Of a stretch of DNA of 64,000 nt, positions 57,324 to 57,864 are shown piece after piece. Origin of the DNA: Prosthecobacter sp. (GTDB lineage: Bacteria > Verrucomicrobiota > Verrucomicrobiia > Verrucomicrobiales > Verrucomicrobiaceae); assembly GCF_029946185.1 (NCBI RefSeq), contig NZ_JAQSEA010000042.1:1-64000 (forward strand), read 5' to 3'. The notes under the pieces are model-generated. The model did no database searches. It was not told the origin of the DNA and saw only the letters and a program-made list of their open reading frames with translations. The first letter of the stretch is position 1. Every line of letters begins with the position of its first letter. The position numbers and the translations under genes are program-made.

Positions 57324-57370
57324 GCAAGACAGCTATTCATACCCGCAGAATAGACTGACTTCCTCGTCTT

Positions 57371-57429
57371 GAAGGCCAACGGCCTTCCGTATCACAGCGA
57401 AGGGTTGCCGAGCCTTGGCGAGGCAACCC
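57371..57429. repeat. Two-hairpin intergenic element, copy A
   Basis: gaaggcc-aac-ggccttc (57371-57387), linker with TATCACAGC, then gggttgcc-gagccttggcga-ggcaaccc (57402-57429). Confidence 0.75.
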
Positions 57430-57592
57430 TGGTACGGGTCGCATCCTTCCGGAAAGCAAAACCAAAACTTTCATCACACGCCGCATTCAGCAGCAGCGTT
57501 TCCCCGCCATCCCACAGCGATGAGGCAGTGTTCCCGCTCGCTCTAAAATTCACCCCGAACCCTGTCGGCGGCTGTTCATGTCAGTCATGAAT

Positions 57593-57853
57593 GGCACTTG
57601 ATTAAGGCGGGGTATCGCGGGGCATCCTTCGCATTGCCTCCTAGTTTTGAGCACCAAAGGTGCGACCTATCGCAGCCCAGGGCAAGCGAGCCTCGGCGAG
57701 CGCCGCCCTGGGTCTCTGCACCAGCAGCCAGGCAGCAAACCCAGCGCCTTCTTCACACACCGCGAGTGCCAGCAGCGTCTGCCCGTCACGCTGTTGCTGC
57801 CTGAGTGTCCCAGCACCCCAAAAAACCACGACACATGCCCTTAATCAAGTGCC
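57593..57853. mobile_element. 261-bp MITE-like unit with 15-bp perfect terminal inverted repeats containing two-hairpin element copy B
   Basis: ggcacttgattaagg at 57593-57607 and ccttaatcaagtgcc at 57839-57853; internal gcacc-aaa-ggtgc (57651-57663) and cccagggc...gccctggg (57676-57712). Confidence 0.65.
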
Positions 57854-57864
57854 AAGGAGATTCA

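What the first reader, a model, noticed from the sequence alone, without database searches (positions are those of the whole stretch)
57371..57712. Two-hairpin intergenic elements with covarying stems and a conserved loop
Copies A (57371-57429) and B (57651-57712) share architecture but not stem sequence. First hairpin: GAAGGCC-AAC-GGCCTTC versus GCACC-AAA-GGTGC. Linkers share TATCRCAGC. Second hairpin: GGGTTGCC/GGCAACCC versus CCCAGGGC/GCCCTGGG, with GAGCCTYGGCGAG conserved in both loops. Different but perfectly paired stems around a conserved loop imply selection on structure: a structured RNA, protein-binding DNA hairpin or REP-like element.
Basis: seen in the sequence. Interest (0 to 1): 0.68.

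Follow-up and report, generated by a model that had tools for sequence, protein, structure and literature searches.

The report
Transposase-linked hairpin repeats in Verrucomicrobia
The two hairpin sequences are copies of a repeat found about 70 to 80 times in this bacterium's genome; their paired stems resemble the ends of a widespread small single-strand DNA transposase gene, and here they ride inside a miniature transposon, so they are mobile DNA rather than a gene-control RNA.

Summary
In detail: both copies, their palindromic stems, the shared linker and the shared loop lie where stated. They belong to a family of about 70 strong matches (80 at E<=0.1) in this genome. Stems covary far beyond shuffles: 40 double-changed cells against 13.9 (maximum 23) here, and 118 against 36 (maximum 52) across phyla.

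Each copy also has a conserved 3' box. Copy B lies inside a miniature transposon of about 260 bp with IS4-like inverted ends; sister copies show 11-bp target duplications. Two same-genus genomes lack the whole A+B block.

The H1-H2 stems recur across PVC and other phyla as part of a three-hairpin module H1-H2-H3. That module flanks a 150-aa Y1 (HuH) transposase in inverted orientation: 27 of 30 homologues have it on at least one side, 14 on both. Dispersed copies co-occur with the gene (53/90 versus 3/52 genomes, p=4e-11). The transposase fits TnpA-Y1 'subclass 1.2', reported to lack REP-type ends.

Most likely A and B are REP-like ends of a Y1 element, captured and spread by an IS4-type miniature transposon. 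Biochemistry is untested. A cis-regulatory RNA is not supported.

The parts
57371..57387 (+). Copy A, hairpin 1 (H1): GAAGGCC-AAC-GGCCTTC, followed by CGTA
   Evidence: folds in DNA model; covarying across copies
57390..57398 (+). Copy A linker TATCACAGC
57402..57429 (+). Copy A, hairpin 2 (H2): GGGTTGCC...GGCAACCC around GAGCCTTGGCGAG (inner stem with GA opposite GA)
   Evidence: family alignment A1
57449..57502 (+). Copy A, conserved 3' box (CCGGAAAGCAAA...CAGCAGCG); not found at Y1-transposase loci except where a window-type element lies next to one, so it belongs to the miniature-transposon form
57589..57607 (+). Left terminal inverted repeat of the element carrying copy B: GAATGGCACTTGATTAAGG
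57651..57663 (+). Copy B, H1: GCACC-AAA-GGTGC, followed by GACCTA
   Evidence: 36 nt from H1 into H2 are 92% identical to the module flanking the Y1 gene in L324
57668..57676 (+). Copy B linker TATCGCAGC
57676..57712 (+). Copy B, H2: CCCAGGGC...GCCCTGGG around GAGCCTCGGCGAG
57727..57781 (+). Copy B, conserved 3' box (GCCAGGCAGCAAACCCAGCGCC...CCAGCAGCG)
57839..57853 (-). Right terminal inverted repeat of the element carrying copy B (CCTTAATCAAGTGCC); the outer ATTC and the target duplication are not recognisable here
57324..57853 (.). Whole inserted block (A + B), missing from the clpB - VanZ-like intergenic space in G012 and G001

Best explanation
A and B are two copies of a mobile, non-coding repeat. 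Its core, hairpins H1 and H2, derives from the terminal module (H1-H2-H3) of a REP/REPtron-like system run by a small Y1 (HuH) transposase of about 150 aa. By analogy with IS200/IS605 and TnpAREP, that enzyme would recognise the folded single strand and its foot sequence, cut, and rejoin. In the window's genus the H1-H2 part has lost H3, gained a 3' box, and been captured in a miniature transposon of about 255-322 bp with IS4-like ends (GAATGGCACTYGRTTAAG); a DDE transposase acting in trans would move that unit, leaving 11-bp target duplications. Shown here: the module flanks the Y1 gene in inverted orientation, modules and gene co-occur across genomes, stems covary, the miniature transposon has inverted ends and target duplications, and the A+B site is empty in relatives. 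Inferred: binding and cleavage by the Y1 enzyme, the identity of the DDE enzyme, and the direction of capture.
For: About 70-80 copies in the genome. Covariation well above shuffled controls in H1 here and across phyla. Y1 gene L061 has H1-H2-H3 upstream and its inverted copy downstream. Of 30 homologues in 30 genomes, 21 have H2 upstream and 20 have it inverted downstream within 260 bp, against about 0.05 expected per side from background in the same loci. In G125 and G097 the dispersed hairpins are of the same sequence type as those flanking the Y1 gene of that genome. Gene-hairpin co-occurrence in 142 genomes: 53/90 versus 3/52, p=4e-11; outside the genus p=3e-7. Inverted ends 13 left and 12 right against 0 and 0 in control; target duplications of at least 9/11 in 6 of 10 against 7.8% in mismatched pairs. 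Empty site.
Against: No Y1 gene was found flanked by the exact window-type unit (H1-H2-box 3), so capture is inferred from similarity of the H1-H2 part only. No autonomous IS4-type element with these ends was found; the draft genome has one weak DDE_Tnp_1 match without such ends. Copy A has no recognisable inverted ends, and only 10 of 44 copies have both. H1 and H3 foot sequences agree loosely: 14 of 61 modules share an exact tetranucleotide.
Confidence: 0.74

Rival explanations
1. The window copies are themselves REP elements still mobilised by a Y1 transposase; the surrounding IS4-like ends are coincidental insertions.
For: H1-H2 closely resemble Y1-flanking modules in the same genus; most copies lack recognisable inverted ends.
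Against: Box 3 and the inverted ends form one 255-322 bp unit with 11-bp duplications; H3 is missing; no Y1 gene with box 3 was found other than one beside a window-type element.
Confidence: 0.13
2. A cis-acting structured RNA (regulatory leader, terminator or mRNA stabiliser) under selection in the host.
For: Strong covariation and a conserved inner motif; only 1 of 31 scored intergenic copies lies between divergent genes.
Against: Copies occur in both orientations (12 same direction, 7 opposite, 11 convergent, 1 divergent); no promoter- or terminator-like site; the insertion is absent in relatives; no Rfam family matches; the same module flanks transposase genes on both sides.
Confidence: 0.07
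3. The perfect stems reflect template-switch correction of palindromes during replication rather than selection or recognition by a protein.
For: A known mutational process in palindromes (general knowledge); it would give covariation without selection.
Against: It does not explain flanking of Y1 genes in inverted orientation, gene co-occurrence, or the conserved irregular positions in H2 (a T opposite T in 33 of 48 cross-phylum H2 sequences).
Confidence: 0.04

Closest known systems
REP/RAYT (TnpAREP) REPtrons and TIRtrons (TIRYT)
   Same: Palindromes flank a Y1 HuH transposase gene in inverted orientation and are dispersed in non-coding DNA; a foot sequence adjoins the hairpin; stems carry conserved irregular positions; copies avoid divergent intergenic regions. 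PMC3733652 also mentions some 'double palindromic' TIRs.
   Different: Three hairpins per end; feet CGTC, GGAG, GACCTA and others instead of GTAG; the enzyme is of class 1 type (Y---Q--HH), not the class 2 TnpAREP; it scores far below NCBIfam's REP transposase cut-off (21 against 80 bits).
TnpA-Y1 subclass 1.2 (classification of PMC6006769)
   Same: Length about 150 aa, DH-x-H, WQ, Y---Q--HH in 29 of 30 homologues, and a conserved C-terminal tail.
   Different: That paper reports no REP sequences and generally no terminal structures, mostly in Cyanobacteria and Bacteroidetes; here nearly all are flanked by three-hairpin modules in Verrucomicrobia and other phyla.
CGTC-tagged REPs (PMC3733652)
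   Same: Many cross-phylum copies carry CGTC directly after H1 and H3.
   Different: Stems of about 5-8 bp with 3-nt loops, not 8-9 bp with 4-5 nt loops; described there as lacking a transposase and not reported from Verrucomicrobia.
IS4-family miniature transposons (MITEs)
   Same: Ends similar to those of IS4 elements (from my own knowledge of IS4), 11-bp target duplications, 255-322 bp, no gene.
   Different: Carries Y1-type hairpins inside; no parent element identified.

Membership tests
REP/REPtron system | Palindromes flank a Y1 HuH transposase gene | tested here: met
   27 of 30 homologues on at least one side, 14 of 30 on both; L061. Met for the module, not for the exact window-type unit
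REP/REPtron system | Many dispersed extragenic copies in genomes with the gene | tested here: met
REP/REPtron system | GTAG foot 5' of the hairpin | tested here: not met
   Feet are CGTC, GGAG, GACCTA and others on the 3' side of the strand as written
REP/REPtron system | Enzyme is a class 2 TnpAREP | tested here: not met
   NF033573 IS200/IS605 above cut-off (66 bits), NF047646 far below (21 of 80 bits)
REP/REPtron system | Single-strand cleavage by the cognate enzyme | not testable with these tools
   needs biochemistry
TnpA-Y1 subclass 1.2 | Y---Q--HH motif, WQ, about 148 aa | tested here: met
   29 of 30; definition from PMC6006769
TnpA-Y1 subclass 1.2 | No REP or terminal structures | tested here: not met
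   this is a reported property, not a sequence definition
CGTC-tagged REP | CGTC next to the stem | tested here: inconclusive
   Met in many cross-phylum modules, but the search pattern itself required CGT; window copies have CGTA (A) and GACCTA (B)
CGTC-tagged REP | Stem 8-9 bp, loop 4-5 nt | tested here: not met
   Typical stem 5-8 bp with 3-nt loop
IS4-type miniature transposon | Terminal inverted repeats | tested here: met
   47 end motifs in the genome against 1 control
IS4-type miniature transposon | Target duplication of about 11 bp | tested here: met
   6 of 10 full elements with at least 9/11; 7.8% in control; B itself has none recognisable
IS4-type miniature transposon | Parent element with an IS4 transposase and the same ends | tested here: inconclusive
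   Only one weak DDE_Tnp_1 match in the draft genome, no such ends
Rfam RNA family | Match above gathering score | tested here: not met
   Only a tRNA in the window

The most novel reading that the evidence does not exclude
A class 1 (IS200-like, 'subclass 1.2') Y1 transposase, described as having no cognate terminal structures, is the enzyme of a widespread REP-like system with three-hairpin ends across the PVC superphylum and beyond. Some of these ends carry the CGTC foot, so it is a candidate for the missing transposase of CGTC-tagged repeats. One genus has moved its hairpins into an IS4-type miniature transposon.
Probability: 0.6. Interest if true: 0.66.

Novelty: new variant of a known kind. 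Interest (0 to 1): 0.52.

Why it matters
It links an orphan subclass of single-strand DNA transposases to a specific, abundant and testable DNA substrate, and gives a candidate enzyme for hairpin repeats that were reported to lack one. It also shows one mobile element's recognition hairpins apparently being spread by an unrelated transposition mechanism.

Tried and rejected
Rfam search: nothing but a tRNA. Y1 genes in the same genome as direct partners of A/B: most of the 18 have no such hairpin nearby; L061 and L062 have related but different modules. IS4-type parent with the same ends: not found. Intrinsic terminator or promoter: none. Foot identity between H1 and H3 as a specificity test: weak (14 of 61). 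Subscription papers are not held, so an earlier description cannot be excluded.

Full report
Observation. A direct comparison shows that homology between A and B continues about 70 bp beyond H2, and that B lies between inverted arms.

The family. BLAST of the region against the own genome gave 63 matching pieces; an alignment of 25 copies gave a model with covarying pairs; that model found 80 matches at E<=0.1 in the own genome (only 150 candidates were scored, so this may be a lower bound) and matches in 39 of 56 related genomes. In H1 of the own genome, 30 distinct sequences have 40 double-changed cells against a shuffle mean of 13.9 and maximum of 23. These shuffles do not keep relatedness, so the numbers are descriptive.

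Not only two hairpins. In the window's genus the unit is H1-H2-3' box. Ten of 44 unique box-bearing copies also have both inverted ends GAATGGCACTYGRTTAAG; 13 have the left and 12 the right end with at most 4 mismatches, against 0 and 0 for reversed controls. Lengths are 255-322 bp. The 11 bp outside the two ends match in at least 9 positions in 6 of 10 elements, against 7.8% when left and right flanks of different elements are compared. The end motif occurs 47 times in the genome against 1 control match. Other elements with the same ends carry a different interior or are much shorter, with perfect 11-bp duplications in three cases (AGGCTTGTCAT, CACACTGACCC, GGGTCAGGGTG). I take these as IS4-family-like ends from memory of IS4; no parent element was found.

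Empty site. In G012 and G001 the clpB stop codon is followed within about 5 bp by sequence that in the window begins at about 57847-57854, at the end of the right inverted repeat, so the block of about 530 bp holding A and B is an insertion relative to these genomes.

A wider module. The sequences show a third hairpin, H3, of H1 type, some 20-30 nt after H2. H1 stems differ between genomes but remain paired: 118 double-changed cells in 73 distinct sequences against a mean of 36 and maximum of 52. H2 keeps a T opposite T in 33 of 48 sequences, and copies in the window's genus keep GA opposite GA in the inner stem (alignment). REP of E. coli also has a functional bulge (PMC8266576).

The transposase. 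The best Y1_Tnp gene of the own genome (L061) has H1-H2-H3 upstream and the inverted module downstream, and L062 has the same layout with other stems. Among the loci, seven hold an L061-type gene, each close to a module. Searching the 150-aa protein P0001 over 142 genomes of the order gave 90 with a match. For 30 loci, one per genome, 21 have H2 in the expected orientation upstream within 260 bp and 20 have it inverted downstream; 27 have at least one and 14 both. The background in the same loci is 0.35 per kb for both strands, or about 0.05 per 260-bp side and orientation. The H2 pattern occurs in 69 of the same 142 genomes and its reversed control in none. At least three copies occur in 53 of 90 genomes with the gene and 3 of 52 without it (p=4e-11), and in 30/61 against 3/50 outside the genus (p=3e-7); genomes are related, so p is a guide only. 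In G125 and G097 the dispersed H2 sequences are of the same type as those flanking that genome's Y1 gene.

Which Y1 class. P0001 scores above NCBIfam's IS200/IS605 cut-off and far below its REP transposase cut-off. It has DHAH, WQ and YIRTQQEHH; 29 of 30 homologues have Y---Q--HH, and the C-terminal tail is conserved. This fits subclass 1.2 of PMC6006769, which that paper describes as low-copy, without REP and generally without terminal structures. The present result differs from that description. PMC3733652 reports CGTC repeats as lacking a dedicated transposase; modules with CGTC next to H1 and H3 flank a gene of this class in L200, which makes it a candidate, but stem and loop sizes differ from their CGTC families.

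Relation of A and B to the module. Thirty-six nucleotides of B from H1 into H2 are 92% identical to the module at the Y1 gene in L324 (same genus), and its H2 is 90% identical to that at L314. The 3' box is not found at Y1 loci except L076, where a window-type element lies beside the gene. I therefore infer capture of H1-H2 by the miniature transposon; the reverse order is possible.

Position relative to genes, using a simple codon-usage gene caller of my own: 12 copies between genes running with the element, 7 against, 11 convergent, 1 divergent. This resembles REP and argues against a leader RNA. No promoter- or terminator-like site was found in the region.

Limits. Draft genome, unnamed; no experiment; covariation counts are not tree-corrected; literature restricted to open papers.

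Noticed in passing
L031 1501-1779, L051 1501-1771, L054 1501-1780: Elements with the same IS4-like inverted ends but a different interior (GGAGCGCGGACTTGAGTCCGC-type hairpins); L054 has a perfect 11-bp target duplication.
   Followed up: partly
L065 1465-2529 and L036 1497-1578, 2167-2272: A 354-aa RAYT-like gene (C38) whose flanking repeats (GGGGTCAGGGTG) carry two short 74- and 98-bp elements with the same inverted ends, each with a perfect 11-bp duplication.
   Followed up: partly
L062 1360-2080: A second small Y1 transposase flanked by inverted three-hairpin modules with different H2 stems (GTGGGTGCCAACCCAC).
   Followed up: partly
L005 and L008 (G000:C29:20364-20742): Near-identical head-to-tail copies of a 106-bp H1-H2 unit.
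   Followed up: no
L003 and L013: Window-type cores flanked by another inverted motif (CTGACCTTTACCCACAA), possibly a second transposon type that carries the core.
   Followed up: no
clpB downstream region in L139-L167: The space after clpB holds different repeats or genes in almost every relative, as if a hot spot for insertions.
   Followed up: no
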